Source: Rodentolepis nana
Lineage: Eukaryota; Platyhelminthes; Cestoda; Cyclophyllidea; Hymenolepididae
DNA: 64,000 nt
Assembly: GCA_900617975.1 (NCBI GenBank)
Contig: UZAE01012017.1
Span: forward strand, 1-64,000
Direction: 5' to 3'
Under the pieces are notes generated by a model. That model saw only the letters and a program-made list of their open reading frames with translations, searched no databases and was not told the DNA's origin. This document shows positions 1-27,300 of the stretch, in pieces. The translations under genes were made by a program, and so were the position numbers. Within the stretch, counting starts at the first letter, position 1. Each line of letters starts with the position of its first letter.

Positions 1-76
1 GTCTATCGCGCAACCTCAAATAATATTAACCCTATTTTATTTCCAAGAGCGTTTGAATGTTAACTATCCTCAACAG

Positions 77-409
77 GGGGTGTGCGATAGACTTACCTCC
101 ACGTGGTGCACCCTGGGCAACGTATACTCATACGGCAAAAAGGTCTATTAACCGGCAGTTGACTTCTGACTCCAAACTACCATTACCCCACCGCATATCA
201 AATTCGACTACTTTAACCGTACTCACCTCACATTTTTTTCCAATTTTGTGTCGGTCTCTTTTACATCTTTGAAACACTCTTCTGTTCCCCCCCCCCATCT
301 CGACCTTTTTCACTTTGATGTTCCTTCCCCTCGCTAAAGCCTGAAGTCAACTAAAGGGCTAATTATAACCATCAAACGCCTGCCATTCGATATAAATGAA
401 AAAAATAAA
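77..409 (+). mobile_element. SINE-like retroposon, family A, copy 1
   Basis: Starts GGGGTGTGCGATAGAC and ends GCCATTCGATATAAAT plus an A/T tail. Imperfect flanking duplication: TATCCTCAACAG (65-76) and TATCATCAATAG (410-421). It lies in the intron after the last visible GTF2H4 exon, antisense to that gene. Confidence 0.8.
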
Positions 410-511: not shown

Positions 512-3500
512 CTGTTGTGAACTGATACCCCTTAGTAGAGCCTCTCGAACAGATTCTCGCGTAATATCAGCGACGATCATATTTGGAAAACGTATGCGAA
601 TCTTACAAAATAGACTCAGAAGGGAAGTCTTGAGGACCGAGTCTGAAACAAAAAAGCAGAAATAAAAAACAGGAGATCAACTTCTTTAATTATTTAAAAA
701 TCGCTACATTCGATGTTGGCAAAACTCCCACATTAAGGATAATTATTTAATTACGTACAGATGAAAGACATACAGACGGCAATAAGTCAATGAGCTCTGA
801 ATACCAGCGACAGAATCCCAATCTCGTAATTTATAACATCAGCATTAGTGGAGTACCGAAGTAGTGAGTAGAAAAAAAACAGGACGTTAGGAAGCGAAGT
901 CCGAACTTACAAAATTTACGAAGCATTGACTAAAAGATGCCTCGACCTCATAATTCGCATTTTATTCAACAAATTGTTTGTCAGGATTAAAATAAGCGAT
1001 GCTTTCCACTTTTTTGTCATAATCAGCATCAGAGGATGGTGTTTTCAAAGGCGGTTAAGGGTATATAAAGCCTGCTATTCACAAAGCAGCTTCCGAAGCA
1101 TTGACTGAGCAACTATTTGCTTTTAGATAGAGCAGAAAGGAGAACATCTAATGTGCTTCATTCACACAATTTTAATCTGCACATAGTGCAATTTTCAAAT
1201 TAACACGAGGTATTGATAAAAGTATTGACAGGCTTTGTAACAAAGGAAAGTAGAAGTCAAAGCGCGATTCAACCGATAAAAAATGGATTTACTCAATGGA
1301 GAAGATTGAGGCTTGTGAACTACACAAACCTAACACGATTAAACTAGGCTATTTCATGCGGTCGAACACTCTGGAACAAGCGGGCCCACCACTAATCACA
1401 ACTGGGAGCAAATTAGGCTACGAGGGCAGAGAGCCATCGACAAATCAACAATTAATAGTTGTTACAGGTTCAGCGTGCCAAAAGAGCACCTAGCGTCGAA
1501 ATCTGTGCCATTTCCCCATATTTAGAGGGAGCATACCACTGACAACACAAACACAGTAAACGTATTCCACGTCATACATTTGCTGAGGCGGGGTGTGCGA
1601 TAGACTTACCTCCACGTGGTGCACCCTGGGCAACGTATACTCATACGGCAAAAAGTCTATTAACTGGTAGTTGACTTCTCACTTCAAACTACCATCACCC
1701 CACTGTATGTCATATTAGTCTACTTCCACAGTGCTCACCTTACCTTTTTCTATACTTTGTGTCTGTCTGTCTCTTTTACATCTTTGAATCCCTCTTCCGT
1801 TTCTCCCTCTCGACCTTTTTCACTTTGATATTCCTCCCTTCTATGAAGCCCGAAGTCAACTAGAGGGCTAATGATAACTATCATAAAGCCTGCCATTTGA
1901 TATAAATAAATAAATACCTTTGCTGAGGCAGCTTAGATAACCTCGGGGGGCTTATCATACTAGGGGATTTTGCCATTAAAATTACTGATGAAAAGTCAAG
2001 ACTATTCGAGCAGCAATTCGCTACAGGCTATAATGATCACTTCATAATAAGTCATTAAGAACACTGCACAGAAGTATGAAGTTTAAATAAATTACAAGTG
2101 GGATAAAGGGTGGCACTTTCTAGTACGCATCTATATCAGCAAATGCATTTATTTTGAGCCAAAGGTCTTTTCGTTTCTTCCTCAATGGTAACAAAATTTC
2201 TGTGAATGGCTAACAATACCACAATCTAGGCTATACCAACCGCATTATCAGTGCAATTAAAAGCATATTAGCGTTTATAAAATGTAAGCAATCTATAACA
2301 GTCAATAACTCACCCGTATACGCATATACACGGAAATTTGTTTCCACGACAATGTAACCGATATCTCCTGCATCACCACCACCATCAGTTGAACTGCGAA
2401 GGGAGATTCCCGTAGGCAGACGGGCGGTTGAGAAGAGAGAGTCAGGTTCAGCTTCTAGGACACTGTGCAAAACAGTTGACGAAGCCTTCGACCCCAATGC
2501 GAAACTCAGCGCCAGTTTAGTCACATAAAATCTAGGAGCCGCTCTCTTACGCTGATAAGCCAGACCTAATTCCCGCATAATCAACAACATTGCTCTCTCG
2601 GTATCTGTTAATTGGTCAATTGGATAACTCTAAAGAGAAGGCCTATTAATGCTAATCCTCTCTGCATACCTTTCCAACAGTAAGAAAACTAAGTTGAAAG
2701 ACAAAATGGATAGTTTCCATAATGCTAATCCCCTGTGCCTAGGGCAAAGTTATCAAAATTGTTGAGATTCAAATACCTTCAGATAATCAAAATAATGAAG
2801 GATAAATCGCAGAATTTGAGTCGGTCTATCCATGAGAAGGAACTGGAAGCCTGCTTGTGAAATGCCAATGGAGTCTCCAGGGCCACCTCTTTAAAGATTT
2901 TAATAAAATAATTTACGCACCTACGATTTCATCAATTCAGATTTTAATAAAACATCCTTGACGACGCTACTGACTTCATCGGTTTTGGAGCCAACCATGA
3001 AATGTAAAATAGTCTAAAAATATTTCTCAAGGAAATTACGAAACCACTTACGTCCCACCTTTCGGAAGCATAATTGTCGAGAAACTCAGCATCTTTCGGA
3101 CGCTTCTCAGCCGTGATAGAGCCGAAATCACTCAACAATGGTTTGCCACTAAAGACTAATAATTTATTCTTGATAATTTACCCTCCAAGAAGAGATATTT
3201 TCATATTTTCTTGAAATTTCTTGTTCAATCTGAATGAGCCTCGAGCACTATTGCTATCAATGCTTTGTAAAATATACAAATCCAAGAGATCTCTACAGGA
3301 TGATTTCATTAAATCCTGAGAGCCTTTTGGAACCCATCCACTAATAATTGACTTCGGTATAGCCTGATCTAGCAAGAGTAACCGAAGAACAACATGTTGA
3401 GCGTGCTCTTTAAGTTCTCTAGAAAATAACGAATCCCTAAATATAAAATACCTGAAGACAATGAGACAAGTTGGAGGATGATTATATAACTCATCGAATT

Positions 3501-3585
3501 CGTTCACACTTAGAGTTTTGAGATAATCAAAAATGCAAGAAGGTCTCGACCCGCCTTCGAGACACATTTGTATTTCATTGATCAT
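512..3585 (-). CDS. GTF2H4: General transcription factor IIH subunit 4 (p52/Tfb2), 3' end outside window
   Basis: p52 is a core TFIIH subunit that anchors and stimulates the XPB helicase in transcription initiation and nucleotide excision repair. Exons in coding order: 3452-3585, 3182-3418, 3052-3148, 2925-3013, 2777-2888, 2670-2738, 2314-2629, 512-642. All join in phase through GT/AG sites and give 395 codons. Landmarks shared with human p52: HPPTCLIVFRE near the N-terminus, ISLLGGGKP, DNYASERWD, TILHFMVGS, SQAGFQFLLMDRP, FVFQLSFLTVGK, RELGLAYQRKR, YIVVETNFRVYAYTD, and FPNMIVADITRESV at the current end. The last exon ends at a GTGCGT donor; the remaining C-terminus, including the p8-binding region, lies left of the window. 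The start is the first ATG of the open frame, 354 bp from the divergent MMS19 ATG. A low-complexity insertion of about 35 residues precedes YIVVETNF compared with human. Six introns are only 33-40 bp; the seventh (643-2313) is 1.67 kb. Confidence 0.95.
1590..1918 (+). mobile_element. SINE-like retroposon, family A, copy 2
   Basis: Full-length copy with AAATAAATAAATA tail and a perfect 11-bp flanking duplication TTTGCTGAGGC at 1579-1589 and 1919-1929. It sits in the 1.67-kb GTF2H4 intron, antisense. Confidence 0.9.
3419..3451 (-). other. 33-nt in-frame mini-intron in GTF2H4
   Basis: On the minus strand this starts GTATTT and ends TTTCTAG. It is 33 nt, divisible by three and without a stop, so translation reads through it. 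Removing it joins CLIVFR directly to ELKEHAQ, matching the ungapped human CLAVFREL segment; retaining it inserts 11 residues found in no p52 I know. The next intron, 3149-3181, is also 33 bp. Confidence 0.85.
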
Positions 3586-3939
3586 TGGTTAGTTTGAATA
3601 GACCTCTTTTTGCTAATTTTATATATTAGTCTATAATTTTCAGAATTGTCGAGTTATTTTCATTGAAAGAGTCATATTTTCAAACTCAATTTCATATTGG
3701 TATTCAAATAATATTCTTTACTTGTGGGCTAGTACTCCGACGACGTAAAAATTTTGTTTTTGTTCTTAACAAGGGCATTTGTAAGGTCATCCCATTATAA
3801 ATAACGCCCAACGTGAGTTAGTTTAGCCGACTTTATTATTACTTTGTCTAAGCTATGTAAAGGTTTTTGTTATCTTTATAATGGTTTATTAAATGCCTCT
3901 GTGTACTTGCTACTTGCTTCCCAATTTTAGATTGCTGAC
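3586..3939. promoter_or_regulatory. Shared intergenic region between divergent GTF2H4 and MMS19
   Basis: A 354-bp AT-rich gap separates the two start codons, so both 5' UTRs and both core promoters must fit here unless one is trans-spliced. An AG after a pyrimidine-rich run (CCAATTTTAG, ending at 3930) lies ten bases before the MMS19 ATG and could be a splice acceptor for a leader exon or spliced leader. I see no clear TATA box or CpG cluster. The bidirectional role is inferred from geometry alone. Confidence 0.7.
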
Positions 3940-6900
3940 ATGTCAGAATTGTTACATCTCGTTGAATCGCTACAGTAAGCTCATTTTTTACGGAAAGTCT
4001 CATGCGTTTATAGAGAAAGTTTAACTTCTCCTAATGACCTACAGCAAAAATCTGCATTCCAAAAATTTAATGCCGGCATAAAGTCACTTTCATCTATTAA
4101 GTTCACTGAAAATGAAGGTATTATATATCGATTTTACTCATTCATATATACGCTTTAGTGTTCCACGTTGTTGACTTCTACGTGTCTCGATTGGTCCATT
4201 CCGATCCTAACTTAATTGGGATTTTGCTTGAAGGTCTCCTCCTCTTTGCAGACAATCAATTACTTTCCGCTAAATGTGCGGTAAAGATATGCAACGATGG
4301 TTTCTATTCCACTCTCAGTATTCAAAGTCTTCGTAAAGAAGAACGCAGAATTGCATACAGGCTCCTTCTTGCTCTTCTCTCCTCCGATCGCACCATTTCT
4401 GGTCTGATATCAATGAAATTAGGGTTCGTTCGCGGCTTTATCGCTTCAGTTGAAAATGAAAAGGACCCAGAATGCCTTATGGCAGTATTTTCTATGCATA
4501 GCATCGTACTAAAACACTTTAATCTCGCTCATTTGGCTGAAGAGCATTTCGATGTTATGGCTGCTTATTTTCCAGTTGACTATAATCCAGTACGCTTTAT
4601 TGGGCCTATATTTATTATTTAAATTTGTTTCTGCTTGCTTTGAGCCTTGTTTTCTGTTCAAATTTAAGCCGGCTGGAAGTAAATTAGGAATAACTCGAGC
4701 ACAACTGGCTGATCGATTGAGAGCTGCTCTATTTGCTTCACGACAAACTGATGGAGCTTTTCTATTGTCTCTTCTTTTGGAAAAGGCGGCATCCCATAGG
4801 CCGGAGGCACGTGCGGATGCTCTTGCTCTTCTTGCTGATTGCGTAAATGGCATACACCATGTTGCATCTTCGTTTATTGACTTCCGGATCAGTACTCTTT
4901 CTGACACACCTGCTGAAGATCCTATTCCCATCTCGCATGTTACTGCTTATCTATTTGCGCTTTGCAATTTGATTAAGCAGCTGGTGAGTCGTATAAAAAT
5001 TTCTCCTAAAACAAGGTAGACGGATAAGCACAAAACACTGGTTCACTTCGGTCTTTTATAAAGAAAAACTTCATTAGGTTTAAATAAGCCTTTTCAATAT
5101 TCTAACCAATCCATTTCTCTGAAATTCTCCCAGAGCACAAATTCCTCCAGGTGAAACTTAACTGAAATGATCGCATAGCTCTTCGCTGAAATTAGTATGC
5201 GGTAATATTAGCCATCTAAATTTTTGTTTAGTCAACCTATGATGTAATACTGTTGAATTCAGACTTCAATCCTCATTGATAACTGTAAATATTGATAACT
5301 TAGTAATCTCTATTGAAGCATGAGATTATGGATTTAATCTTCTAATAACTTCACAGGGGACAGAAGAGATTGGTCGTGGGAGAGTTGAGGGTAGTATTGC
5401 AGTTCAAATGCTAGTTATTAGAAATGCGTGTGAGCTGAATGTTAATTCATATATGGAACAGAGAGGAAGGTAATAACCTTGAACTTGATAACCTGAATAT
5501 AGTCTTGAAGAACGCGGCCATATTTTAGTAATAAGTCAAGTTATTGTCGTTGGATCAGTATAGAAGTTGGGACGGCCACTCCAAATTATTTTTAAACAAA
5601 TTAGGAATCCTAAGCAAATGTTTGTTCCTTAGTCGTCAGTCATGTCTGGTCATAGGTTTCTTTGTGTGGTGATTGGTATCTGAAACAGTTTGTCTACTTA
5701 AATATGCGCGCCTTGACAGCCTGTTCATATATTTTTCGAGGTTCTATTGTTTCCGATCATAGGGTTGAGGTTGACCCCAGTTGTATATAATAAGACAGTT
5801 GATAAGCGTGATAGATTGATAGTATGTTGTAGCCCTGTTATTTGGGTCAATATCGGTTTTTTAAAAGACTTCTTTGGAAATCATTAAAATTTTCTCTAAA
5901 CTAGAAGGAAAGTATCTATATATCTAGTCAATATTCAGAGTTATTTTTATTAACAAACGACTATTCCTTTGCTGCTGGCCTTCAAATGATTTTTTCCCAA
6001 TAATAGACAATAGAAATGGATGTTTCAGACGATACCGAGGACATCAAACAGATGCTTTGTTTTGTTGCCGGACTATCGGCTATGTTCAAAGGGAAGGTGC
6101 GTCATCTTGCATGCACATTTTTACATAAAATATTTTCTCCTCTGATTAATTGTTTATTCTACAGCCAGAAGAGTTAGATTTCGTGGAGACTTTTCTCAAG
6201 TGTCTCTGGCCAGAGAAGTCAGAGGAGGAAGGCGATAAGGTGATGAAACTTGACAGTTGGTTTTCTGTACCACCAGACGATGCTCACGTTATTCCGACGC
6301 AGGCTCCGGATGCCCTTGTGTCCGATTGTCTTCTCACTGCAGTTCTCGCGGCTCCTGGTGGTCATCTACTGCCTCGTCTATTTCGCCGTCTAGCCACTCC
6401 TCTTCTTTGGCTAAGGGTTACCTCACTACCGACAGAGGATTGCTTCTATCGAGCTAAATTTGAACAGGTAAAATTAGTTGTTTCTACTTTGCACGAACCG
6501 CTTTGTATATATATGCTGAAATATTCAAACAGTACAATAGATTCTAGCCTGAGAGAGAGATAGAGATCACTAAGGTAGTAGTAAGGAACCTACTAAGGTT
6601 TAGCCTTTATCTAATGCACTAACTCCACTTCCACAAGCTAAAATGCAGGAAGAGATAAAGTGAGGGAGTAATTCAAATTGGAGAGAGAACTAGAGTGGAG
6701 TGGTTGTGATCTTGGTCAAATCGATTGTTGAATCTGCATAAAAGTTCCACGTTGGTAGGGGCTAAGGTGTTTGCTCTTGAAAAAATCTAAAATATTTTTG
6801 TTGCATTCTGATGTATGAAAAGTCCACTTGAATCTCATTAATAAATAAGAAATGAACATCTAACTTTCACACTTTAGTTTAAATCTTGCTGTTATATAGC

Positions 6901-9900
6901 AAGGAACAATGTGACTATTCATGTATGAGCATACTCAAGTAATAGGGTTGAACTACTCAGATAAATCAGATGGGTAAAAATTTCAATACATGCCAATAGT
7001 GCTATGATAACTCTGTCCCAACCATAGGTCTGTTTCGAACTAAATTATTGCACTTCTCATTGGCTATGAATCGATTCAACGGTAATGAAATAATTTTAGA
7101 TCGCTCTTTGGACACCGCATCTCTCCCTTCTCAACCGACTTCTCTCTCACGTATCTCGTTGTAGTGGTTTATCGTTCGAAGGCGAGTAATCTTTATACCA
7201 AATCCCTCCCACTATTAGTGCACTCATTAAGTAGCCTTTTTTGTAGATCTTCAGTTGAATAAAGAGAATACTTGCGCCATTATCTATAACCTTTCAAACA
7301 CACTCAAAAGGGCATGCTGTGATCTAAAAATGTGTGAATACGAAGGGAATGTGAAACAAGGTTTCACCGAAGTGGCAACCTTTTCTCTTCTCTGTCGTCT
7401 CCTTTTACTTATTGAATTCGATTATGAGATGGAGAGAATGGAAGTTGGAAAGGCATTCATTGAATTCTGTCCCCACATCTTGGAGCATATGCTGTCTGAT
7501 TGGACTAAAGATCCCGTCCTTCGTGCTTTAAGGTATCTTTTTTGTCACATGTTTCAGATTTATCAAAGTAATGTATGATATTCAAGCTAGCTTTTTATTG
7601 TCTAATGCAATTAAAATTTGATCATTGAACACGAATACTATTGTCTAAATTCCGTAAATGCTTATGTTAGAAAAGAGTTATTTGCATTGTAGATTGGAGC
7701 AACAAAATCTGCTGGCCAATCTAATGACCCAGGCTTGCTTGGTTGAAGATGATCTCAAACTCCTACTCTTTAAGTTACTTGGAGGTAACAATTTTACTCC
7801 TTACTTTAATCTCTGCCATTGTAGAAGTCTCATGCATGGAATACAAGGGTGTTGCAATAGAAATTCTTCAAAGAGCAGCGTGTGGAAGCACTGCCATTCT
7901 TAACAACTTTCTCACCCTTCTGTTTGAAAATTGTCGTGATTCGATAAGCCTAACACCAAGTTCGTTTGCAATATAATTACATTCAAAATGCTGTTCTTAC
8001 TTATTTTATGTTAGTAATACGTATTTAATAATTTTAGTTGTTCATTTGGTCCAGGCAATCCTCTTCATAACTAAATCTCTTCGATTAAGTGATAAGAATG
8101 GAGCCTTGCCATTATTCGCATCATCTCTTCTAGATAAAGTGAATGATTTTATTTATTTCACGTCTCGACTAATTTGCGATTTGGGGGAAAAGGAGACAAG
8201 GAACTGTTTGTTTGATTTGCTATATACATTACGATTGGTCTCTTCAAGCCTTTCTGCTGAGTAAGTCATTTACCCATTAGGTAGTTTTATTCCTTATGTA
8301 TTATAAGGCAAAATTTGGTCTTAATATTCAGGAATATTATTAAGCCCTTTTATCTTACCCTCTTTTATCTAGATTAAATTTCTTGATAAACTTAACGTTG
8401 AATTTGTTAACATTTTAAATGAATCTGTCACACTTGATACGTATTCAACCAGCTCTGGTCCACACGACTTCCTCTACGACCTATCTAATTTTAGTTGGGG
8501 GATCAACCCTCGTCTGCGAAATTCTCTCCTAATTTTGCTGTTTCCTAACATCTAATCATGAGTAAATAGCGGCATATTTATAATTTCTTTTTTTTCAAAT
8601 TCAATACCTCTGGGAGTTTTTTTGGTATGATGAACCTTCGCGTAGGTCTTAAAGTGTATATTTTTCTTCACCTCTTCTGTTAATAACTGTTGTCTCTCCT
8701 ATAAAAAAACAACGGTCTCACTTAGCAACTTAGCCTACATTAATTCGTTTTGGTATACAGTTTACTTAACAGGTAAACCTGTTTTTTTTAAATTTAATAC
8801 GTAGTCCGATAACTGCATCGATGGTTTAGACCTGGAGTGCTCTCTGCAAAGTTGGATTTGGGGTAGTTATAGGAGAGCGCTAAGTAGGTTTCGAAATAAA
8901 AATGCTTAAAATGCACGAAGTGCAAAAGTAAAATGTTTGGAATGTTTAGTATGCCTGGACGCATCTAGGTCGGTCCAATACCGTTGATTTATCTCTTGAA
9001 CCCATTTGTGTAACGAGCTTGTAGAAATAGCAGGTCACGCCTTTCTCATGCCTGTCTCCTATTCTATGAAGCATTGTAGATGTTTACGTCTCACTATCTG
9101 ATTGTAATCTAGGTGATGGATTTTAATTGTCCTCACTTTCCATTTGGTTTGAGTTAATTTGACATGTGGAATTGGTTTATAATAATTCATATTGTTCTCT
9201 ACGCTTATCCTACTATAACCATCGGTTCTTCTATTTCAGTATCAATTAACGTCCGAGGGTCTATTTTCTGTAATTAATTATTTAAATTACCTCCAAGTAT
9301 CAGGGATTAGCACCATTTAAAGTCTGTTACTTCCTTAATTTTGTCCCAATATAGATAATAGATACTCATAATTTCTTTCTTCGTTCGAATAGGCTTGATT
9401 ATGAATATATAATTGAATTATAGAAGGAATAGCGAGTTTATTTAATCTTTAAACTGTTACGAGGAGGTATTTTCCGGTGCTGCCCTTGTCGGAGGAAATG
9501 CATATTGGAGCCTCTGTTGGGGAAAAAAACGTTTTACCACCCCAGCTCAGCCAATTCATTTAGTCAATTGGAATATCGAAACCTGTGACTTTTCTCGGGC
9601 TGTCTCGAATATGTCGAGGAGATCCCCTCTGTTAACGCTGATATAACGCATCTCCCCCAAAATACAATACTTTAATTAATTCTCTTCTGAGTCCTATTCA
9701 GTTATTAGATTGACATTTTGGTGTTTCTGGGATGTTGGCTTAGCCATCTCTCAGTATTTAACATCAGTTTCTTATTGGAGAGCTCCATTCATTCGTCGTA
9801 ACATCTCCAACTTGGGGCAGGTGTGCCAGGCTCAAAATATTTTTTTTAGGACGAGGGCTATAGCATTCAAATTTGGGCTTTTTCCAAATGGTACATCATT

Positions 9901-12900
9901 TTATAGGTGTAATTTATGGCCTTCCCATTTAACTGCTGATACGCTGTGGATGTTGTTCGTGGATGAGATAAACACCTATGAGATTGATCCCCCTTCGATG
10001 CCTATTCAATTCTATGGCTGTTGATTCTGGCGATAAAAGGGTAGGGTGAGTGCCAATTTCTCACATGAGTAGCGTCATGATACTTTACACCTGCCCATTT
10101 CAATACTTCAATACTGGTGGATTCGGAATGTTAATTTTTGCGTTTATTACCAATTCTTATTTGATGAATCAAGGTGAAACTTAGTCGTAAATCATCTGGT
10201 TATCCAGCTTATTTCACCGAATGCCTCTTAATCAAATAAACGTTTTATCTTTTATAGCGTTATGGGTGATTGGGTTTGAAATTTGAGCTTTGAAATTTAC
10301 GGCATAAAATTGAAGCCATAACTATCACATCCGTTTGACGATGGACGGTAGAAGCGCATTTGTACTCTTCCAATTTTTCAATTTGAACAAAATTTTAAAG
10401 TTAATTTTTTAATTATATAACTTTCTGCTTTTATCTTTTCATATAAATTGGTGCCCAAGCGCAATCGTTATTTTTTTTCTCATTATTTTTTAGAGAACAT
10501 GGAGATGCCTTCGCTTCTTTTGTAGAGTTCACAAATGCCACCCAGGTGGTTGTTTATCTTATTTCAAAGTGTGCGCATATATGTTTCTCAATTTTAAACA
10601 CTTCTGCTTATTTTTTTAAAGAAAGCGAATCCATATGTTGCCCTCCTTCTAAACAATGCAATCTTTTCGGCTATTCCTCCAAATGTAAGCTCCTTCTCCT
10701 TTCTTCATGAGTTATTACGCTATGTTCTTTGCCATTCTGGTTTAGTCTGCAATTGTCAGAATAATAGCCGACTAATTCCGCATACATGAAAAGAGCTGTT
10801 CTTTTCACCTCAACGTTCATTATAAGAGGAATCTCTGGCACATCGAGAACTACTTGAATTGTCCCAGACAAAACGTGTTTTACCGGATAGTAACCCAGTA
10901 TAGTGTGATAATTGAAATGAGGTTGGTGACACAAGTGGTGATGTGCGGGTGTTTACCTACGTTTGATCATATTTAATAGATCAATGCTAATCGGTTTCAC
11001 ACTAATGTGATGACTTAGAGAACAGAGACACAATGGACGCATCATCTTCGCACTAAACCAACTTCAATTGCTACTCTTAAAATATATATTAACGGGCTAA
11101 AATCCATGAAAAATATAGAATTACTGTACTGAATAGGGTAATTGCTATTTTCTCTATTTTTCTACATCTTTTTTGTGTGCCTCTCCATCAGCTGGTGGGT
11201 CAGACAATTAAACTGGCTGTAAATACAAGGTGAATAAGAATTAGCTTCCAATGAAAGCGTGCCAATTTATTGACGTGCTACGATTTTTGTGGACCTATTG
11301 TTCGTTTGCGCATTAAATATAATGCTTGTTTGCACATAAATGCTCTACGTGTGTGTGTGTGTATATAATAATAAATGCGTGTAACTGGTAGAGGACACTG
11401 AAGGCATGACTCAAAGCACAGAGTCCATACTTTGTCTCTGAGTGTACAACCAGTCTCAGTTGCCTGCTAGTTCTATCTGGTTGGGAGCGAGAAGAGGTGA
11501 TTCTTAGCTCAAGCGAAAGTTCGGGAAAAAAACTCTTCTTACATAGGAGTGGTTATGTGGTAAATGACTGGTTTGCCTGGTAAGCTAGTAACCGTACCGA
11601 TGATTTCTTCACAAGTGATCCTACAGGGACCAGTGCGCTCGGGGATTTAGCTCGAGTGTACCAGAAGTATTCGATTAGTTCACGTGACACGATCTTTATA
11701 ATTGATACAAAAGTCAAGTCTTTGTCAGAAATCAATGCGTTTAAGTTGGATAATGGTTAATATTGATGTGACAACGGGATTTTGAACTTCTAAAAGTTGC
11801 TGTACTTCGCTTTTCAAGCAATTCGCTGATTTTTTTAATACGAGGATCACCCTAGAGAGAGGCTTTGAAGAAGTCCATTTGGTATGCTATACTTTTTGAC
11901 AATTCTGCAGTAGCTGTTTTTTGTGTGCTGTTAGCTGTTCAATTACTGAACTATTTTAATTGACTATTGCAAAAAAATGTAATAATGCTTGTTTTGATCA
12001 ATTTGCTTCCAATTATACCATTTTTCTTGTTCACTTCTAGTTATCTGCTCTCCCCCTTAACAATGTCCTTAACCTCCTAAGCATGTATTTTTCAATTGTC
12101 ATCTCCGATCACGATTCTTCGACCTTGAAGTGCATTGCTTTCAATGAATTATGCGTTACCGTCACATCAATGATTAACAAATTTCCCAACAAAGGTAATG
12201 ATTTATCACCCTCGCAAAATAACAAGGTAGTTTATTGCAACCCCCAATCCCCGATCATCCACTGTATTTCCCTATCCGATACTTACAGGTTTATGGTATT
12301 GAATTCGTAGATTTGGGAATTTAAATGAAGATTTTCCTACTGTACATTGTATTACTTAATTAATGCCTAAACTTCTAATCTAGTAACTATGATACGCTTA
12401 CAGATGGCTCATCGTATACCTCGGGCTTATCGTGAGCCAATATTCTGCTGAATAAGAGTAGGCTTTTGGATTGCAATGCAAGATCTATTTTTCTTTTTTA
12501 CTCTAAACTCCCTCTTAGCGATCAGTTGCTAAGGCAAACTAGAATGAGGGCTTACATACGGCTATGGCTGTGGAAAATAAAATTAAAGGCTAGAAAAATC
12601 GTTAGTCTGACCAAAACATGTTGTAAAGGATAAATCCTTATTTTCTGATTCCTTTCATCTTAGTCGGATATCGTAAGCCAACGCTATCTTTATTATTACA
12701 GAAATCCAAACGACTGTAGAAGGCATTCTCGACTCCCTATTAAAGGTGTTCAAAACTGATTCTGCCAAGTCTCACACTCTCCTAACATCCGGTTTTGTTG
12801 TATCAGCTTTACGAAGTCTTCTAGTCTCTCAACTCCCTCTCTCTCCTGAGCGGCAACAATTCATAGATAGTCTTCTCAATATCATTTTGTCCAGCACTAT

Positions 12901-15900
12901 CGACTACAAGATTGGACTTCAAACTACCTGCATTCTACATTCCATCCACCTTCTTTTACCTCTCTCTGGAAATTATCTAGGTGCGGATATTGAGCATGAG
13001 GAGAAAGCAGACATTGAAAGAATGGCTATGAATGAAGAAGTCTGCCATTGTCTAGTGAATCCTCTTGCTGTACAGAAGTGCTTCAGTCTAGTGGGATTGC
13101 GTCTTCGCAACGCCTGGATGGAGATGAAATCCATCTCGAACCCATCGGCGGATCAAATTAATCTTGCAGGTAAGTGCCTCGTAGAAATTAATGCAACCAT
13201 TAAACAAAATTACCATATAAACAGAAAGTACTAAAAGAGTGAACTGAGTGCACACAAGTACAAAGATGTGTGAAGTCGGATTTACTATGTTAACTTTGAC
13301 GATCGATAGGGCTTTGTTCTAATACCTATTTCTATAAAGGTATGTTCACGATACTGGCGTAAGATGAGTAGATATCGACTGATATTTAACAGACGTAAGC
13401 ACGCATTTTCTGCGCCTAAAAGAATGTATACACTCTTAGGAGCACTAAGAATGTAAAAGGTCAAAGAATACTATTTTGAAAAGGTTATTTCATTGGTTGG
13501 AGATTTTGCATACCCTGACAATTTCGCTAACGCAATGTTCCATCGTCTCCTTTGTAATCATACAAGTGATCTTCTAGCTTGTTCGCGTTAATAATTTAGC
13601 AAATTCTGAAATATTTGAACGTCTTGAGTTCCCTATGTGGATTACTTTTATATAGTTCTCAGGAGGGATTATGGAAGCATCTTTTTTCTTTAGTTAATCG
13701 TTTTTTTTTTCGCAAACCAAAAAGACTTTTGTCATAGAAATTTACCTCATGAAACTTTATCCATTGGAGGGGGAGGGGGGGGGGAAGAAGCAGGAACTTC
13801 AAATTCATAAAGGGTATTTAAGCTTTGTCCTCCTTTTTCCCTTATTTTAATCTTCAGTGTTCTTTCAGAATGAAGTTATTGAAACGCCATTTACTCCATT
13901 ACTTTCGCTCTCCATCTCTAGGCCAAAATTTTCGAAACAACTTCCATACATGTTCCAGTAGGCTGTTGTTTGTTTACTGTGTGCGATGTTTCTTTCGCCT
14001 CTTTGTTATATGAAATGTATTTTCTTTGTGGGGTGTGTGTGGGGGGCCGGGGGGGGGGGAGGGAGATGAAACCCTGCCCTGGGTCTATGGGGAAAAATAA
14101 TTAGTGAAAATGGAAGTTTAAGTAGGAGGCGGTTACCGTTTTCGTCTATTTTGCCAATGAAATTTTATTTCCCATTGCCATCATTGATTGAAGGAGAAAA
14201 TTTTAATATTGATCGATGCCTTTTTAATATTTAAGTCTATGAGAGATTTCCACCTTGTTGCGGTTTTAAAAATCTGAACTATGGATACTAATGTGCTGCT
14301 TACTAAATGGTGGCGGAAGGCACTTAAATCGATTGAGACGGTTGAAACGCGTGTCATTCTATGGTGACTTAGCAATTTACAAAATGCGCACCCACGATTC
14401 CTTGTTGAGATCCAAGTTGTCTTTGCCCAAAATTTTCGATCTCTATCTAGCACTTTTTTTCTACTTCTCAGACAATATTCTACAACCTATTTAATAATAT
14501 CCTTACTTTGAGATAGTAAAGTTTAAAAAGCCTATCTGCGAAGCCCTTTTCTATACATTTATTTATTTCAAATGGCAGGCGTTTTGATAGTTATCAATAG
14601 CCCTTTAGTTGACTTCGGGCTTCACAGAGGGAAGGAACATCAAAATAACAGAAAGTCGAGGGGTGGGGAGATTCACAGTAGAAGAAAGTCGAGGGGTGGA
14701 GAACAGAAGAGCGATTCACAGATTAAAAGAGGCAGATAGACACAAAGGTAGAGGAAAAGGTAAGGAAAGAGACAGACAGACAGACACAAAGGCAGAGAAA
14801 AAGTAGGATGAGTACTGTGGAAGTGGTCGAATATGAGATACAGTGGGGTGATGGTAGCTTGAAGTCAGAAGTCAGCCACCGATTGATAGATATTTTTGCC
14901 GTATGAGTATACGTTGCCCATGGTGCACAACGTGGAGGTAAGTCTATCGCATACCCCTTTTCTATACATTTATATTTAGTAAAATTATAGTTTCATGAAT
15001 CCCCTCTGGTGAAAAACGCTACTTCTGCTACTTCCTGTTATAAATCTGATCTAACCAATGCAGTCGATTATGCCCTTCGTTGGGCGTGCGCCAGTAGATA
15101 TCGACTTTGCTAACATGCGCTCTAACTGAGGATATGTGTACTATTTCCCTTAATTTAATATTCAGTCGTGATTGAGCGCTTGAAATTTTGTAGTGTTCTT
15201 TTTTTGCACTTTACAAACCTACAACGCCTCAGTCTCCAAAATTGGCATAGGAATTGTATTAAGGAAAAATTGCTTGAATAATGGTTGATTAATCTAATTG
15301 GCCAATGCAGGCGGCAATAAGAGTACCTTTGTTGTGGGTTTGCAGCATTCCAGTCATCGAAAATCAAGTTTACTTTAATGGACTAAAACTATTCCACTTG
15401 TCTACCTAGTAGAGATGAAATCTTATATTAAATGCTGTTTTCCGTCTACGCAATTCAGACAGGCTGTCGCATGTTTCGTTGTAGCCAAACTAATAACGTC
15501 CCCTAAGTTATGGATACTATAATTTGTTGTGAAGTAACTCACTCAGGTAGAACACCGAGATGACCATTTTAGGCAACTGCATTTCCAAATACGAATTTGA
15601 GGCATTTTTGTTTACCTCCAATGTAAGTGTAAGTAGTGGCACTCTCGCTCAACCATTTCATGCATCATCTGGTTTAATTCAGTTGCATGTGAGTTGAAAT
15701 TTTTCTTCGAGGAAATAGTTTTAGTTGCCATACTTTGTAAAACCAAGTTTTTACACTCACTTTCTTTCGCACATTGCATTCGTTCCCCAACCCCCACCTC
15801 TCCTTTGGGAAGCCTGGATGCAGTAGCTATTGACCATTCTATCATCCAATTATTAGATTGATTAGGTTATGAACTGCGATTTTCTATCGATTCTGTGTTG

Positions 15901-18900
15901 CCACCCTCCACCCTCAAGATGGGCTAAACCTAGGTGAGCTTGGGTATTACTGATATTATTGTGAGATTGCTTTGTTCCATAAATACAGTTGAGTTATTAT
16001 GCATTCCAAATCCACTCTGAGTCTTCTTTGCATTCTTTATTCACTTGCAATCAGTCGGTAAAGTCCTGAATTATTTCAAGGATATTTGCTACCTGTCAGA
16101 ACTTACTGTTGGTTGCGTAAGTTTCGAAGGGGGTGACTTATTATCATGCGTTGTAAATTTTGCTTCATATTGATGGAAGTTTTGCTTCACCCAATGCAAT
16201 TGGGCGGCCTGGAGGTTACATTCTTTTATAAACCCCCGAATATACGTCGAAGGTTTGTATAAGCATGGATTCTACCTGCTAGTGCTTCAAGATCGATTCC
16301 AAAATACTTTCCCTTTAGTCAAGTCCAGTGGTATATACCCTTCTTCTAATAGATTTGGGGAGTTTACTGCCCGAGAAATTCATCCTGTTCGCCAAATTTT
16401 GTGAATTTTACTCAGGGAATCCGGTTTTGCTTCCCACCAGATGTCATTTTGTTCCTTTTCTCATAGTACCGCTGCTTCACATTGTCTGTCTGCCAAAGCT
16501 CTTAATAGTTTGCGTAAATATAATTTTTTTCGTGCACTTTATAACTCTTTTCGTGGGGAAGAAATGGGTTGTATTTGGGCGCTTATAAATTTAGTTTATT
16601 GTTGTCCTGAATGTAGGACATGTTGCAATGAATCGCAATCGATCAAGTAAAATTGTCCGTTTGGGGGTTTGATTAGAGTGAAAACAATTTTCTCTAAACG
16701 TTTACTCCGACTTGTTTTCTCTCTCTCTCTCCCGCCCTCTCAACTAAATCATGTCTGCTTAGTTTACTATTTCATTCTTCATAGTTGCCTGTTTAGTGTT
16801 TCAGTGCCATCTTGGCAAAATTCGAACTTTGAATCGCTTACTTACTCCTACTTCACCTTAGGAGTTATTTTTTTCTTGTATCAGTCTCATCATTATGGTT
16901 TTGCAATTGATGACCTCATAGTTCCAATTTACTTACTTTAATCGACGAGTTTTTTTGAAGGGGTGGGAAGCTTGTCATTTCCATCTCTAGCACTGAACAA
17001 AATTCTCTGCCCTTAATTTACCAAATATCAGTTCACCAATTGTGTTCGATTCGCGTCAACCTTCCCTACTTTTGCCAGCATGACGGTGTTAGTCTAGTTG
17101 ACGGTAATATATAATATTGTGGCCCCTTGTCGACCAATTAACTGATTATATTTGATTGACTTGAAGGAGGATGAACAACTGGGAATGGCTCAATTACAAA
17201 CTCGATTTTACTGAAAGGTAGAAGTCGTCGGTGTGGCAATCACGTCTGTTGAACAGATAAGATTATGGGCTGGGTGATTGGTTACTATGAATATCAACAA
17301 ATATCTAACTGGAGTCAGTGAACAAATTGTGTATAATTTGCGAAGACGATTCAAGGAGTGGGAGGTTGTCTGCCAACCTAAAGGTGTCACTGACACATTA
17401 TTTTGGTATAGGCAGGACCTCTAATGTATCAGGATAAATTTTATGCGCTCATTGTTGGTGGCCTGTGAATGGTACTCATAATCGCTTCATTTGTTATCCT
17501 CAAGTTCCAATCAGGCTTTGTACCTACATAAAGAGATGTCTTTTCTTCCATATCTACTTCACTCTACCCTGCCTCCTCTACTCGAAATAACTTAGTTACC
17601 ATCACTGCGAGAAGGACACAATCTCTAGCGTCGCAATCGCGCCCTTTTCCCGCACACTTATTTCACCTTTCTCATGTGCCAAAACACAAGTCTTACATGT
17701 TTTCATGTTGCCGACCCTATAGATAGTGTGTGCGTGTGTGTGTGTGAAAGCGGGTTGGTAACAATTCCAAGGAAACAGAACTCTGAGTTGTCTTCTTTTC
17801 ACACCCATTCACTCAAACATGCGTTTTTATCTTCAGTTCTTTTTCGCAAGATTGCATAAAGAGTCATAGAGGTCTTAGAAACCTCACTATTATTCTGTCG
17901 AGAACTCTATGCCTTTGCAGAATTGTAAGTGAAATAGAAGTAGAAATTGATTGAGATTAAGCCCTAATTAAACAATGAATAACGGAATATGGCTTCCAAA
18001 GCAGCGAGTCTTTAGGGTGTCTATAGTCTACTTAAGGTGGTTGTTTTAACACGCTTTCCTTAAAGTTACTTATTTCACAGTAACCTAAATCATGCTATTA
18101 CTTCTCCTGTTTCCCCTCCCCCCCTTTTATTTTGTTCAGATTATTTTGTTTCATTAATCATTTTCCGCATCGAATGTTAATATATATATATATATTTTTA
18201 ACAACTATCGTCAGATCTTACTTATTATTAATTAACCATGGTTATATATTTCCCGGTTTGTAGAAACCTTTCTCCACGGATATCTGCATCTTGTCTCTCT
18301 ACTTCCAGACGATATTGCTGGAATATACGCTTCTGAGGTTAGTTGATCTTTAGAATGGGAGTTGTATTAATACTGACGTGGATGATTCTATACAGTTAAA
18401 GACTTCAAAGTACGTGTGCTCGAATGTATTTATTTTTATTTATTCGGCAAGGCAAACCGTGACTTACAACGTGTGGTCCTGGGGGGAGGGGGGGGGGAGG
18501 GGAGAGTGGTGGAATCTCTAAGCCTTTGGACCACATTTAAGTTGGAACTTGCGAAGAATAGACTTCCCACTAGCATTCATCAGTCAGATTTCGTTTTCTG
18601 CCATTGAGCAGCATCTGCTTGGTGTGTCCCCAATGTGTGCGTTTGCAGATTTTGAGGTACTCATTTTCGGTGTATGAGATTTCATAAACATTTCATCTTT
18701 CCTGTATTTATTTACTCGATCAGTGAGTTTATTGCGCCATATAAACAGGTTCATTGCGTGACCTACTTATGTTTATACTCTTACCATTTATGGTAAGATT
18801 TTAGTTTGTCATCAACTCCCCACCTACAGCTTGGTATAAGGTACAGAAGCATTACCTACCCTTAATTCTTCTCTAATTTGCCAAGAAACAGGATTGAAGG

Positions 18901-21900
18901 GAATCATAGTCACTTAGTAAGCTTAAACTTCTCAGGTCCCTGGAAGAGGACTCGTAGCTGGAGCAACGCTGTTGGCAAATAAATGGTTGTCTGGTTCACT
19001 AATAGTCGTGGCGATAGGTTCACCATTGGTGGTTTTAAATATGCATATGGGAATTTAGAATTCCAATAGTCGATATTCCAGCACGGGTCTAATGATAAAT
19101 ATCATTCATTTCAAATGGCAGGCGTTTTGATAGTTAACATTAGCCCTTTAGCTGACTTCGGGCTTCACGGAGGGAAGGAGCATCAAAGTAACAGAAAGTC
19201 GAGGGGCGGGGAACGGAAGAGTGATTTACCGACGTAAAAGAAACAAACAGACCCAAAAGCAGTGAAAAGATGAGATGAGTAACGTGGAAGTGATCGAATA
19301 TGACATACAGTGGGGCCATTGTAGTTTGAGTCAGAAGTCAACTGGCGATTAATAGAATCTTATTCTTATGGTTTTTCTTTGCCTTCAAATGTATTAGGCC
19401 CTTGAAGCTGCTGTCCTAGGAGTGTTGGAAGAGACCAGCTGTCCTATTAGGCAACAGACTCGGGTACTAAGTCTTAAGGTGATTGCAAGATTGGCTGCTG
19501 CTCAACGTTCCTCTACCTTCGCCGATACACCAACTCTCCTGCCATCTACCGATTCTGCAGACGACTTACTTGAGAAACTCACCGCTCTTAGACTCACTCT
19601 TGCGGACGCTGATTCATCAGTATGTTCTGTAGTGGACTAATTTTCAGTATTAAATATCCATGGTAAAACTTGAACACCAAAACTACCACTTTCAGGTTTT
19701 TTTATTAAATTGAATGGAGAGGTCTTTGAAATTCGGTGATTAGCCTTAGAGTAAAAATGGCAAGCCATTATAAGCACGACCACACGAAAATGCATTTGTT
19801 TTTTTGTTGTAACAAAAATGGGAAAAATTGCTGCAGTCGTTTTCTTCTCTACAGCATATTCTATTTGACAAAAGTTGCTGCATTAATGGCGTTTATTCGC
19901 GGTTTTTTACTTGAGCTATTTCTTGTTACACGCGCACGCGCGCGGGAGACAGGTATCTACAGGCTTCCAATTATGAAATTACCCTTGAACTTTGCTCTTT
20001 TGACCAATATTAGCGTGTGTTCTGTCTTGGTCATGGGTCTTTTGTTGTTTTTATTGTGGTGGACGTGCACGTTTTCACTGCCTACTCCGATTCCATATTT
20101 GTTGCCTCACCCCAAAATACCCGAGTTGAGCAATTGACAGCTTCCCCCCCCCCATATCTTCCCCTTATTAACCTACTCTGGTGCTGGTCTAAATTGGCCG
20201 CACTTGCAGGAAGGGCTATTGCGAAATTTGATTTTCAGGGTGTTAATGCGAATATTATGATCTGTAGAACTTGATATTTATGTCTCCCTAAGCAAGTTAC
20301 GCATGTTTATTGCAATTAATGACTCCATGTCGCAAAGTGTCTCAATGGACTGTAGTCTCGATTGAAAGCCCTGGTAACTATTTATCTTATTTCTGGTAAC
20401 TAGATATTGATGAAAATGTGAATGCTGCCGGTAGTACGGTCACTGATCTAATGTAAATAGTAGGTCAAAGTAGGTGATAGCTTAGTTTGCTAGAAACTCG
20501 GCTATTTAAATTTATTTTACGACGTGGCAATTGAGTGGGGGTTAATGAGTTTTTAGGTAATCCTACATTCAGAAGCCCCGGATGTGTGGAAGTTACAGTT
20601 GCGCTCTGAATTCTTTTACTAAATGGATGTTGGTGCTTATGGTAAACGCGATGGCTGTGGCCGAATAACTGGAAATAATTCAATTATCAGAATTATCATT
20701 CATATTGCTGGTGACCCAATCAGATAAGGTTTCCAATGAGTTTAGGGCATACACGTTCTTCGGTTCGATTAGTACATATTCGACAACATTTCAAATTTCC
20801 CTTATCGCCAGTAAAGGCCATCTTCAAGATTACCAATTTACGTATTTTCTTACACTTAATATTCACTATTCCACCTCCCTGTGAAAGCCTTTAACGATCT
20901 ACTACGTTCTATCATATTTTTGAGTACTGATCTCGTTGGTATTTTTTTAATGGATTTAAGGTGCGGATTAGATTGAAATCCATTACTACCATGGTGCATT
21001 AAGGAAGATTTCCTCTTTAACACCTAACCTCATTTTCATACATACCGGAAGGTTTTTGGGTGTGGTAGCGGCGGCTACAAATAAACGACGTTGCCTTTAC
21101 TCCGTTTCAAGGTCAAACTAAATCCAACCACCGAGGAGGATACATTTTCTTTTAAAACGAGTTTTTATTTTCACAAAGAAAACAAGAATTCCGAATGAAA
21201 TGTGATATACAATATGAGCGGATGTACCCGTTCTCGCGAGTGTTGCCTAGTTAATAGCACTTTACTTCTTCAGGTCTTATTTTAAAGTAACATAAGCCCT
21301 CACTGTTTTTATATTTGCTAAAAATGGTCCAATTTTTTTCCGAGCTCCCTTTATCAGCTCTCTGTCACTTAATCTCTTTGGAATTGGCTTAGTCGTTGGT
21401 AGAATATCTGCCTTTTTTGCCAAATTTCTCTCTCTCTTCCTCTCTCTCTATTGCCATCTTCATGTGTTCACGTTAAGCTTCTAACTCTACACGGAGGCCA
21501 TTAAAAGATGGAATATTCCTTCTCATTAACCTTCGATCAACTGGGTGTTACATTTTTAAGCCTGTGAAAGCACACAAAGAGAAAGATGTGCGCAAGTCTC
21601 TGTCTGAGTAATTTGAATTAACCCCCCCCCCCTCCCTCCCTCCTTTTTGCCGTCATTTTAATCATTGTATATGCACGCCCTATCGCTATCTACCGCCCAT
21701 AATTTCCACCTAATTTATCGATGGCTTTCCTAACCAATTCTTTTTTTCTCCTGTTCACTGATTGAACAGCTTAGTACATCTAACCTACGATTCAATTTGG
21801 CTCGTTGTTTGCGTTTTCTTGTCGACCTTCCGCCTCCGGTGACATCGAGACATCGAAAGGGCGTTAAGCTTCTTCTGGAGGATCTGCTTGATGACAACTG

Positions 21901-21958
21901 TCAGTCTGTACGACTGGAAGCTGCCCGGGCAAACAATGAGTGGTGTGTCAAGGTGTAG
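3940..21958 (+). CDS. MMS19: MMS19 homolog, cytosolic iron-sulfur assembly targeting factor
   Basis: MMS19 is a HEAT-repeat scaffold that, with CIAO1 and CIAO2B, delivers Fe-S clusters to DNA-metabolism enzymes including the TFIIH helicase XPD. Exons: 3940-3974, 4014-4117, 4159-4589, 4669-4983, 6007-6096, 6165-6467, 7255-7532, 7693-7784, 7825-7959, 8038-8260, 10494-10545, 10622-10684, 12041-12194, 12702-13169, 18264-18337, 19398-19619, 21770-21958. They total 3,228 nt with phase kept at every join: 1,075 residues against about 1,030 in human. Diagnostic matches are ENEKDPECLMAVF (human GEKDPRNLLVAF), EEHFDVMAAYFPVDYNP (human EELFEVTSCYFPIDFTP), and the C-terminal VRLEAARANNEW (human VRKEAVSARGEW). 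The middle exons diverge and rest mainly on splice sites, phase and helical-repeat character. Exon 9 uses a weak GTTCGT donor. Introns range from 39 bp to 5.1 kb. Confidence 0.95.
8261..10493 (+). other. MMS19 intron, 2.2 kb
   Basis: AT-rich with no exon I can support. The 104-codon frame at 9710-10024 has no recognisable content. Confidence 0.7.
13170..18263 (+). other. MMS19 intron, 5.1 kb
   Basis: Holds family A copy 3 (14563-14954), G-rich runs near 13770 and 14041, and a short AT tract near 18181. Flanking exons join in phase, so no exon is needed here, but a pair of small phase-neutral exons cannot be excluded. Confidence 0.65.
14563..14954 (-). mobile_element. SINE-like retroposon, family A, copy 3
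   Basis: Reverse-oriented copy flanked by a perfect 19-bp duplication CCCTTTTCTATACATTTAT (14544-14562 and 14955-14973), so it looks recent. It carries an internal expansion of GAAAGTCGAGGGGTGG-type repeats, which makes it longer than the other copies. It lies in the 5.1-kb MMS19 intron. Confidence 0.9.
19107..19370 (-). mobile_element. SINE-like retroposon, family A, 5'-truncated copy 4
   Basis: Carries the tail (ATTTCAAATGGCAGGCG) and body but stops before the GGTGTGCGATAG 5' end. The truncated edge lies about 28 bp before the acceptor of MMS19 exon 16 (19398). No convincing target duplication was seen. Confidence 0.75.
19620..21769 (+). other. Last MMS19 intron, 2.15 kb
   Basis: Contains a CGCGCG-rich spot near 19935, a C-run near 20148 and CT/C-rich sequence near 21420 and 21624. 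No repeat copy or exon recognised. Confidence 0.65.
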
Positions 21959-24343: not shown

Positions 24344-27300
24344 CTACTCCGCTGGAGTAGACTCAGTTGCAGCTGTTGGAGTAGATTGAGCAGGAGAGGA
24401 TTCAGAAGAGACTTCCTTATTTGCTTGTGCCTGTTTGTCAGAGCCTTCAGCTGCTGCTGTGGACGAAAGGACAGGTGAAGAAGTTACAATATCTTCGTAT
24501 TCTTCGTCCTCATCGTCTCCGTCTTCAATACCTGCGCCACCGCCACCACTCTCGGATGCTATTAGCATCTCGTATGTGTCTGACGCGTAGCGATCCCAGT
24601 CTGATACCTCTGTTAGGCCTTCTTCAATATCCTGAAATGTGAGGAAAATGTTTAGGTTTCAGTGGTGACTACTCGACCTTGTCATGCCATGAACTCTATG
24701 CAATCGCACATTGCTTAAACAACGGGTTAAAGTAAAATACAGTCAATTCTTTCCAAAGTGAATAAAATTTCTTTGGGATTTTCCCTTATATCGATTTCCA
24801 GTTGCTCAAAATTTTAAATGGCAGTGGCATTCTTTTCTTCACTTAAAGTTGAAGTGGAAAAGAAATTATGGATTTGAGTGATCATGGCTTTCCATCTCAA
24901 TAAGTAACCATTTTTAACTGCGTCAAAAAGTTGCTCATTGATTCATTCAAATTCTCTAAAGCCCCGTATTCACCTCATATCTCTCTTCTCTCCTGGGGTT
25001 AGAATTTTATTCAGTTCTATTCCCCTTTACCCTCTCCTATACCTACTTGTGTCTCAACACCAATTTCTGTCTACCCCAATTTTTTTAGAGGAATTGACAA
25101 AGTTTGAAAAGGCACATTTATGACCTCAAGAGCAATAGCCAACACTCTATAAAGTTAAGATATTAGTTTGAGCTCTGGAATTTTTCTGGCAGAAATCTCT
25201 ATTATACAAAACCGTGCAAAATGAAGAGACGTTATGAAAACTTGAATTTATTTTTATCAATGCTTAAATTATGAAAAAGTGCCTTCCCAAGCTCTCCTTT
25301 TTGTCCATATCACCTTTGCGCTTCCCTTAAATTCGCGTAGGCGCAGAAGTATTAAGGCAACTTCCCACTATATTCCTCTTCCAATTGCAGACGTGTGTGT
25401 GTGTGTGTATGTGTGTGTGTGTGTGATCTCTCCTTTTCTTTTTATTACAACAGGAATAGCTTTGACAGCAGTGACAGTGCTGGCACTTAAGAGGCATGAA
25501 GTCTTGTCAAAAGCATGCCACTAACCGGACTGATAGCTCTATTTTGTCACAAAAAGATAGTCATTAACAGAAATATGTTCCGATGAGTCATGATAGCTTA
25601 GGTATCCAAGGAGTGAGAGATGAATTACAACCCCCAGAGACCTGGTTCACTTACACCGTCAGTTAACGAGCTATGCTACTGGTGCCTAATGACATTCATA
25701 GACAGAGGCGGCAGTAACAAACGCAATTGTCGTCGTTATTATCATATTGGTGAATCACAAACATGGTCCAGATTATAGTAATAGCTAATGAAGTGCAAGA
25801 AGTATGACACCGGTTTTGCTTTTGCTATGACACTGCGATATGTGGATGACTTGGAGAAACATTTTCGTCAAGCTTATATGCATAACATGTCGTTTTGGGG
25901 CTGATACAAAAAATCGTATAGTTCCCACACACTTAAACCTTTTCAGGGAAGCTGAAAGTTAATACCATGGCTAATTCAAGTACAAAAAGTTTAAAGCCAT
26001 ATGTATTAGGAGTTTCCAATTAATTGGGCTTTCTACAATATTATGCCATTAAACGGAACACTGACATAAATAAATTCCAATTTCAAAATTGCTCGAAAGC
26101 CTTCTCTATTTATTCACAATTCGAAATCGGATGAATGTTCAAATAAGACTGCTGAAACTGCCATTTGGGAGCCGTCAGCCATATAATATTGGCAGAAAAC
26201 TGCTCTAGATTGAATGAGTTCAAAGAAATCCTTGGTTGAAATACTTAAGAGGTAGACTTATTCGTATAGATTTCGCCCTTGAACTGTGAAAGTCATTTCA
26301 GTTAATTTAAAGGAAAAAATACAGAAATAGTGTATTTAAATTACGAAAGATACTAATGTGCGAAACTTAAGACTAACTCTGCAAAATTTAAGTGCACGCA
26401 TTTTGAGTTCCTCAAAACAGAAATAGGGTAATGAAACCATTTCTCTCAGGTCAGAAGTGAGCAAAAGCATGAACTAAGCAGGAATATATCAACAACTGGC
26501 AAATGAGGAAATTTAAAAGCCCCATTACCAGGAATAAATAGAAAACTCCCATTTTTTCTCTGACTTTCCTTATAAATAAACTAACATATTATAGAGCGAT
26601 AAAGGACACATACCCTCAGATTGGAGAAAGGATCCCGTTGTTCATGCTGCAAGTATTTAGGCAAATTGAAAAAGGTGTCAAAGAAGACAGGACAGAGGTT
26701 ACATTTCTTGAGATCAGAGAGACGAATCTTGTCAGGGATGGCAGGTCGGACCATATCTAAACACTGGCAGAGACAATCTTCTAGGGTTGGTGGTTCAATA
26801 CCCATCTCTTCCATGCGTGCTGATTGCTCCGAGTAGAAGTATTCCAACTCGTAGAGGGAAAGAACTCCATCACCATCTAAATCCATACACCGGAACCAGT
26901 ATTCGATACTGTAGGAAAATGAAGAAATATATTAGCAAGCGCCAACAGAGTTTAATAACTTGAGTTTATTTGGTCATTGGAACTTTTAGTGGAGTTGTTT
27001 TAGTAAGAAAATTGTATTTTACTCCCCCCCCCCCCACCCCCACTTTTTGACCAAAATTCATTGGTGCGATCGGTCACCCCTGCCCATATTCCTTATTAGT
27101 CAATTTTGTAAAAATTAATTTCTTATTATCATTAGATTCGATGTCTTTCAGACGAGACAGAATTTGAAATGTCTGGATATCAAGCTGTCCCAAACAGATA
27201 CTGGCAAGATATATGTACGCGAAAAATCAAATACTACGCTAAGTGAAGTTTTAGAAGAGGACAAGGCCAGCTTTTCCGGAGAGGTCGCAAAACAGAAAAG

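What the first reader, a model, noticed from the sequence alone, without database searches (positions are those of the whole stretch)
3182..4117. TFIIH p52 and the Fe-S factor MMS19 are divergent neighbours sharing 354 bp
The sequence shows GTF2H4 (minus) and MMS19 (plus) with start codons 354 bp apart. Established: p52 anchors XPB in TFIIH, and MMS19 targets Fe-S clusters to XPD, another TFIIH helicase. Inference: one bidirectional promoter could co-express a TFIIH structural subunit with the factor that matures its Fe-S helicase. I know of no such pairing in vertebrates, where the two genes are on different chromosomes.
Basis: partly seen in the sequence, partly recalled or inferred. Interest (0 to 1): 0.75.

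Follow-up and report, generated by a model that had tools for sequence, protein, structure and literature searches.

The report
Head-to-head tapeworm repair gene pair
In a tapeworm genome the gene for a subunit of the TFIIH transcription and DNA-repair complex sits back to back with the gene for an iron-sulfur delivery factor, a real pair of an ordinary kind whose suggested shared control has not been tested.

Summary
GTF2H4 (TFIIH p52, minus) and MMS19 (plus) are single-copy divergent neighbours at the start of a 100,320-bp contig, the length of the contig that carries the public Rodentolepis (Hymenolepis) nana MMS19. Start codons are 354 bp apart as stated; relatives begin at the next in-frame ATG, so 372 bp is likelier. 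The gap is unique and AT-rich, with a weak excess of TATA- and CCAAT-like words.

Comparison was thin. Locus tags suggest close linkage in Anoplocephala perfoliata but not in Taenia solium. A shared promoter is plausible and unproven. Head-to-head pairs are common in compact genomes, and repair genes often have them: in a human survey 35 of 105 did, none with another repair gene as partner. p52 contacts XPB, not the Fe-S helicase XPD, and MMS19 has many clients (both recalled), so the co-expression rationale is loose. I file it as an ordinary divergent pair with a testable, speculative functional reading.

The parts
512..3585 (-). GTF2H4 (TFIIH p52/Tfb2), eight coding exons in the window: 3585-3452, 3418-3182, 3148-3052, 3013-2925, 2888-2777, 2738-2670, 2629-2314, 642-512; 3' end missing (continues on contig C1646)
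   Evidence: Pfam Tfb2; splice model in frame with GT-AG introns; 96% identity to H. microstoma p52; C-terminal exons at C1646:11279-11440 and 11114-11221, minus strand
   Evidence: first residues of P0001 and P0002 align to 3567; N-termini of relatives; in-frame TAA at 3591
3419..3451 (-).
   Evidence: the 11 residues are absent from P0001 and P0002
3568..3939 (.). 372-bp gap between the likely start codons; presumed promoter region(s) and 5' UTRs of both genes
   Evidence: unique in the genome; GC 0.30, CpG o/e 0.83; weak excess of TATA-like (TATAWAW 4 against 1.49) and CCAAT words (3 against 0.99) over 303 GC-matched, overlapping fragments of the window
3925..3930 (+). TTTTAG, splice-acceptor-like (UUNYAG) site; its last base is followed by 9 nt before the MMS19 ATG; candidate trans-splice or 5'-UTR acceptor
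   Evidence: pattern scan, 2 plus-strand hits against 1.71 expected; motif from PMC12582326
3940..21958 (+). MMS19 (CIA targeting factor) from ATG 3940 to stop 21956-21958; first exons 3940-3974, 4014-4117, 4159-4589
   Evidence: Pfam MMS19_N; tblastn of R. nana and H. microstoma MMS19 along 3940-21955; stop codon; exons 1-3 identical to P0121

Best explanation
This is a real divergent (head-to-head) pair of two housekeeping genes, GTF2H4 and MMS19, in the tapeworm Rodentolepis nana, with 372 bp (or 354 bp) between start codons. Most likely the gap holds two core promoters within one open-chromatin region, so the two genes may show some coupled transcription, as close divergent pairs often do. 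The pairing most likely arose by chromosomal rearrangement within the cyclophyllidean tapeworms and is kept neutrally or for low-noise housekeeping expression, not because p52 and MMS19 must be made together. Shown: identity, orientation, spacing, single copy. Inferred: promoter arrangement, linkage in Anoplocephala and its absence in Taenia, evolutionary cause.
For: Gene identities and models. Unique gap. Both genes on a contig of 48,508,142 bp with tags Aperf_G00000032999 (GTF2H4) and Aperf_G00000033015 (MMS19) in A. perfoliata, but TsM_000717600 and TsM_000345300 in T. solium. Background: bidirectional genes are 32.17% in Drosophila and 17.87% in C. elegans (PMC3403606 Table 1); 35 of 105 human DNA-repair genes have bidirectional promoters and none of the 35 partners has a role in repair; neighbours are often co-expressed but rarely functionally related (PMC5572396).
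Against: No expression or TSS data, so even the plain promoter statement is inference. By a rough count a TFIIH-by-CIA pair among all divergent pairs is expected only 0.001-0.003 times per genome (component numbers and gene totals recalled), so this particular pairing is unlikely by chance; that is a post hoc choice among very many conceivable related pairs. The absence in Taenia rests on unverified tag order, and the probable Anoplocephala linkage means that the arrangement has outlived at least one family split.
Confidence: 0.72

Rival explanations
1. A selected bidirectional promoter co-expresses p52 and MMS19 so that TFIIH assembly and Fe-S loading of XPD are kept in step.
For: Short unique gap; probable close linkage also in Anoplocephala, another family; weak excess of TATA- and CCAAT-like words; both genes bear on TFIIH (recalled).
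Against: Probably absent in T. solium (tags far apart). DEAD_2 helicase genes, the family that holds XPD, were found on C3161, C2865, C2838 and C386 only (not resolved further). Human repair genes with bidirectional promoters have no repair partners (0 of 35). p52 contacts XPB, not XPD, and MMS19 has many non-TFIIH clients (recalled).
Confidence: 0.12
2. Two independent promoters: MMS19 is transcribed from a start separated from its ATG by an outron or 5'-UTR intron ending at the acceptor-like TTTTAG just before the ATG, and GTF2H4 from its own proximal promoter; little co-regulation.
For: UUNYAG-like site at 3925-3930 fits the flatworm trans-splice acceptor motif and the common sharing of such sites with cis-splicing (PMC12582326). 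The T. solium model reads a proline/leucine-rich stretch (PLPLPL) just before MSELL, as a translated pyrimidine tract would.
Against: Such sites are no more frequent than chance (2 on the plus strand against 1.71; 3 on both strands against 2.14 in matched fragments); the paper reports under 10% of genes trans-spliced in cyclophyllideans.
Confidence: 0.13
3. Assembly artefact: the two genes are not truly adjacent.
For: The assembly is fragmented (4701 contigs) and splits GTF2H4 between two contigs whose edges carry a high-copy repeat.
Against: The junction lies in unique DNA, both genes' first exons are on one contig, and A. perfoliata tags agree.
Confidence: 0.03

Closest known systems
Divergently paired genes / bidirectional promoters (head-to-head, start sites under 1 kb; PMC3403606 passages and section 5; PMC2670823 listing only)
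   Same: Two adjacent protein genes on opposite strands with a gap under 1 kb; the class is enriched in DNA-repair genes.
   Different: Here both partners bear on TFIIH; in the human survey none of 35 repair genes was paired with another repair gene. Start sites are not mapped here.
Flatworm operons and SL trans-splicing (PMC12582326: abstract, outline and passages)
   Same: Compact gene spacing; acceptor-like site close upstream of MMS19.
   Different: The paper's candidate operons are same-strand genes within 300 bp; this pair is on opposite strands.
Human MMS19 and GTF2H4 neighbourhoods (recalled, no call)
   Same: As I recall, human MMS19 also has a head-to-head neighbour (UBTD1).
   Different: As I recall, human GTF2H4 and MMS19 are on different chromosomes (6 and 10).

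Membership tests
TFIIH p52 (GTF2H4/Tfb2) | Tfb2 domain along the protein | tested here: met
   Pfam PF03849: profile 1-105 and 231-322; 1-138, 131-322 and 303-348 in six frames
TFIIH p52 (GTF2H4/Tfb2) | C-terminal domain (PF18307 in relatives) | tested here: met
   P0001 residues 403-456 and 452-487 match contig C1646 at 91% and 97%; off this contig, by sequence match, PF18307 itself not scanned
MMS19 | N-terminal MMS19_N domain | tested here: met
   2.2e-29; only locus in the genome
MMS19 | C-terminal domain | tested here: inconclusive
   PF12460 finds nothing in the window (its one hit, C1358, is below the cut-off). A profile of six other cestode MMS19 proteins (A2, without the R. nana protein) matches the 125-residue MMS19 chain 6tbl_A at 1046-1102 with E = 0.0011, and 6tc0_C only over 4-250
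Bidirectional promoter | Adjacent genes, opposite strands, heads facing, under 1 kb | tested here: met
   start codons 354 or 372 bp apart; start sites of transcription unknown
Bidirectional promoter | Shared element drives both genes; correlated expression | not testable with these tools
   no expression, CAGE or reporter data
Selected functional pair | Arrangement conserved in relatives | tested here: inconclusive
   A. perfoliata tags support linkage, T. solium tags argue against; tag order not verified

The most novel reading that the evidence does not exclude
A tapeworm lineage (Hymenolepididae plus Anoplocephalidae) put GTF2H4 and MMS19 under one selected bidirectional promoter, so that TFIIH core assembly and Fe-S loading of its helicase XPD are transcriptionally coupled: a repair-repair head-to-head pair of a kind that a human survey did not find.
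Probability: 0.1. Interest if true: 0.5.

Novelty: new member of a known kind. Interest (0 to 1): 0.2.

Why it matters
If the coupling were real it would be a natural link between making a TFIIH subunit and delivering iron-sulfur clusters to TFIIH's helicase, testable in the laboratory tapeworm H. microstoma. As it stands it is a well-placed but ordinary divergent gene pair.

Tried and rejected
I did not run the viral or prokaryote contig scans, since they hold no flatworms. I compared species through contig lengths and locus tags in the protein searches. Of the 9 cestode MMS19 entries, 5 have a contig length, and among the 120 listed of 480 GTF2H4 hits only A. perfoliata of those five species has a contig too. 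No trematode MMS19 was returned by either MMS19 search (10 hits each; both scored only the 7995 and 7994 candidates sharing most words), so trematodes are untested.

Literature, ten searches: MMS19 with GTF2H4 gave 17 papers, none with both terms in title or abstract (listing only, plus passages of PMC6852550, which concern plant TFIIH pull-downs, with an unrelated promoter remark). MMS19 with 'bidirectional promoter' gave 2 papers and with 'head-to-head' 2, seen as listings apart from PMC6852550. Bidirectional promoter, head-to-head and Schistosoma together gave 2 (listing). led to PMC12582326; one search gave 10 papers, of which PMC3403606 and PMC5572396 were opened for passages. Locus-tag searches gave 0. 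The Anoplocephala search listed 10 of 2,754 papers, none on Anoplocephala; the flatworm MMS19 search listed 12 of 5,415, each with 0 mentions of MMS19, so it does not show that no such paper exists. I make no claim that the pair is absent from print beyond these searches.

The bacterial promoter scan (5 found, 2.1 expected) is not meaningful for a eukaryote and was set aside. The PF12460 hit on C1358 was not followed up. My draft MMS19 query contained a stretch (encoded near 5357-5470) that P0121 and P0122 lack, so that exon guess was wrong; it does not touch the first exons. Rfam found nothing in the window at gathering scores. No structure was predicted.

Full report
What is there. The window is bases 1-64000 of contig C2215 of a 107.1-Mb, 4701-contig assembly; the contig is 100,320 bp long. 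The public Rodentolepis nana MMS19 protein P0121 lies on a contig of exactly 100,320 bp and its first 190 residues equal my translation of the first three plus-strand exons, so I take the species to be R. (Hymenolepis) nana, a cyclophyllidean cestode. The minus-strand gene is GTF2H4: Tfb2 domain, 96% identity to H. microstoma p52 over 98% of the draft. The plus-strand gene is MMS19: MMS19_N domain, with homologous stretches of R. nana and H. microstoma MMS19 along 3940-21955 and a stop at 21956-21958.

Corrections to the finding. Start codons 3585(-) and 3940(+) have 354 bp between them, as stated. The H. microstoma and A. perfoliata proteins align from their first residue to position 3567, the next in-frame ATG (MCLEGG), and taeniid proteins begin MCAKK or MCARK at about the same point; 372 bp is therefore the likelier figure. 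The stretch 3182-3585 is two exons with a 33-nt, frame-neutral, stop-free intron; the 11 extra residues of the read-through are missing from P0001 and P0002. The seven GTF2H4 introns of my model in the window measure 33, 33, 38, 36, 38, 40 and 1671 nt. The gene runs off the contig: p52 residues 403-487 of P0001 match C1646:11440-11114. Both contig edges carry pieces of a high-copy repeat of about 400 bp, which probably explains the break.

The gap. The 372 bp match only themselves in the genome and are 30% GC with CpG o/e 0.83 (window 37%, 0.74). Against 303 GC-matched, overlapping fragments of the window, TATA-like (TATAWAW 4, mean 1.49) and CCAAT words (3, mean 0.99) are in weak excess (5-10% of fragments reach the counts), initiator- and DPE-like words are not; no GC box, NRF1, YY1, E-box, DRE, CRE or ETS match was found. 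That fits a promoter region but does not tell one promoter from two. A UUNYAG-type acceptor (TTTTAG, 3925-3930) ends 9 nt before the MMS19 ATG; the motif is that of flatworm trans-splice acceptors, which are often shared with cis-splicing (PMC12582326, abstract and passages). Two plus-strand matches against 1.71 expected make this a lead only.

Conservation. In Anoplocephala perfoliata (same order, family Anoplocephalidae) GTF2H4 and MMS19 bear the tags Aperf_G00000032999 and Aperf_G00000033015 and both lie on a contig of 48,508,142 bp; tags 16 apart among more than 33,000 point to close linkage, though not to proven adjacency. In Taenia solium the tags TsM_000717600 and TsM_000345300 are far apart, which argues against adjacency if tags follow genome order, which I could not check (one search found no paper with neighbouring tags). 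H. diminuta, H. microstoma, Echinococcus, Mesocestoides, Spirometra and trematodes could not be compared with the data held.

How likely by chance. Bidirectional genes are 17.87% in C. elegans and 32.17% in Drosophila, and the share falls with genome size (PMC3403606 section 5). With those rates, and recalled numbers of genes and of TFIIH and CIA components, a TFIIH-by-CIA pair is expected 0.001-0.003 times per genome, but the number of gene-set pairs that a reader would call related is very large, so that one such pair turns up is no great surprise (inference). In humans 35 of 105 repair genes have bidirectional promoters and none of the 35 partners is a repair gene; PMC5572396 repeats the point and cites the suggestion that such promoters serve noise reduction rather than co-expression of related genes (passages). 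DEAD_2 helicase genes, the family that holds XPD, were found on C3161, C2865, C2838 and C386, not here (I did not work out which is XPD).

Mechanism and verdict. Most likely two core promoters share one open region in a compact genome and the functional link is incidental (0.72). A selected TFIIH/Fe-S co-expression device remains possible (0.1-0.12); p52 acts on XPB and MMS19 serves polymerases, primase and several helicases besides XPD (recalled), which weakens the rationale. The finding is accurate in its observation and speculative in its inference.

Noticed in passing
window 1-400, about 1560-1950, 14561-14960, about 19100-19350: A high-copy interspersed repeat of about 400 bp (outer bounds of the second and fourth copy by eye; 7153 first-look candidates genome-wide, 40 scored). 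Pieces of it lie at the edges of C2215 and C1646, between which GTF2H4 is split.
   Followed up: partly
window 7977-8264: H. microstoma MMS19 has a stretch (IVHLVQAILFITKSLRQSD...) whose like is encoded here but is missing from the public R. nana model P0121, which appears to skip that exon.
   Followed up: partly
window 3149-3181 and 3419-3451: Two 33-nt introns in GTF2H4; six of its seven introns in the window are 33-40 nt long.
   Followed up: no
window 26581-30317 (-): EF-hand exons (EF-hand_13, 6.6e-22 at 29826-30317; EF-hand_7, 2.6e-5 below its cut-off at 26581-26931), perhaps a PP2A B''-type regulatory subunit gene (that name is my recall).
   Followed up: no
window 3940-21958: Cestode MMS19 proteins (9 of 9) carry MMS19_N but no precomputed MMS19_C domain, so the flatworm C-terminus seems to have diverged from the Pfam model.
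   Followed up: partly
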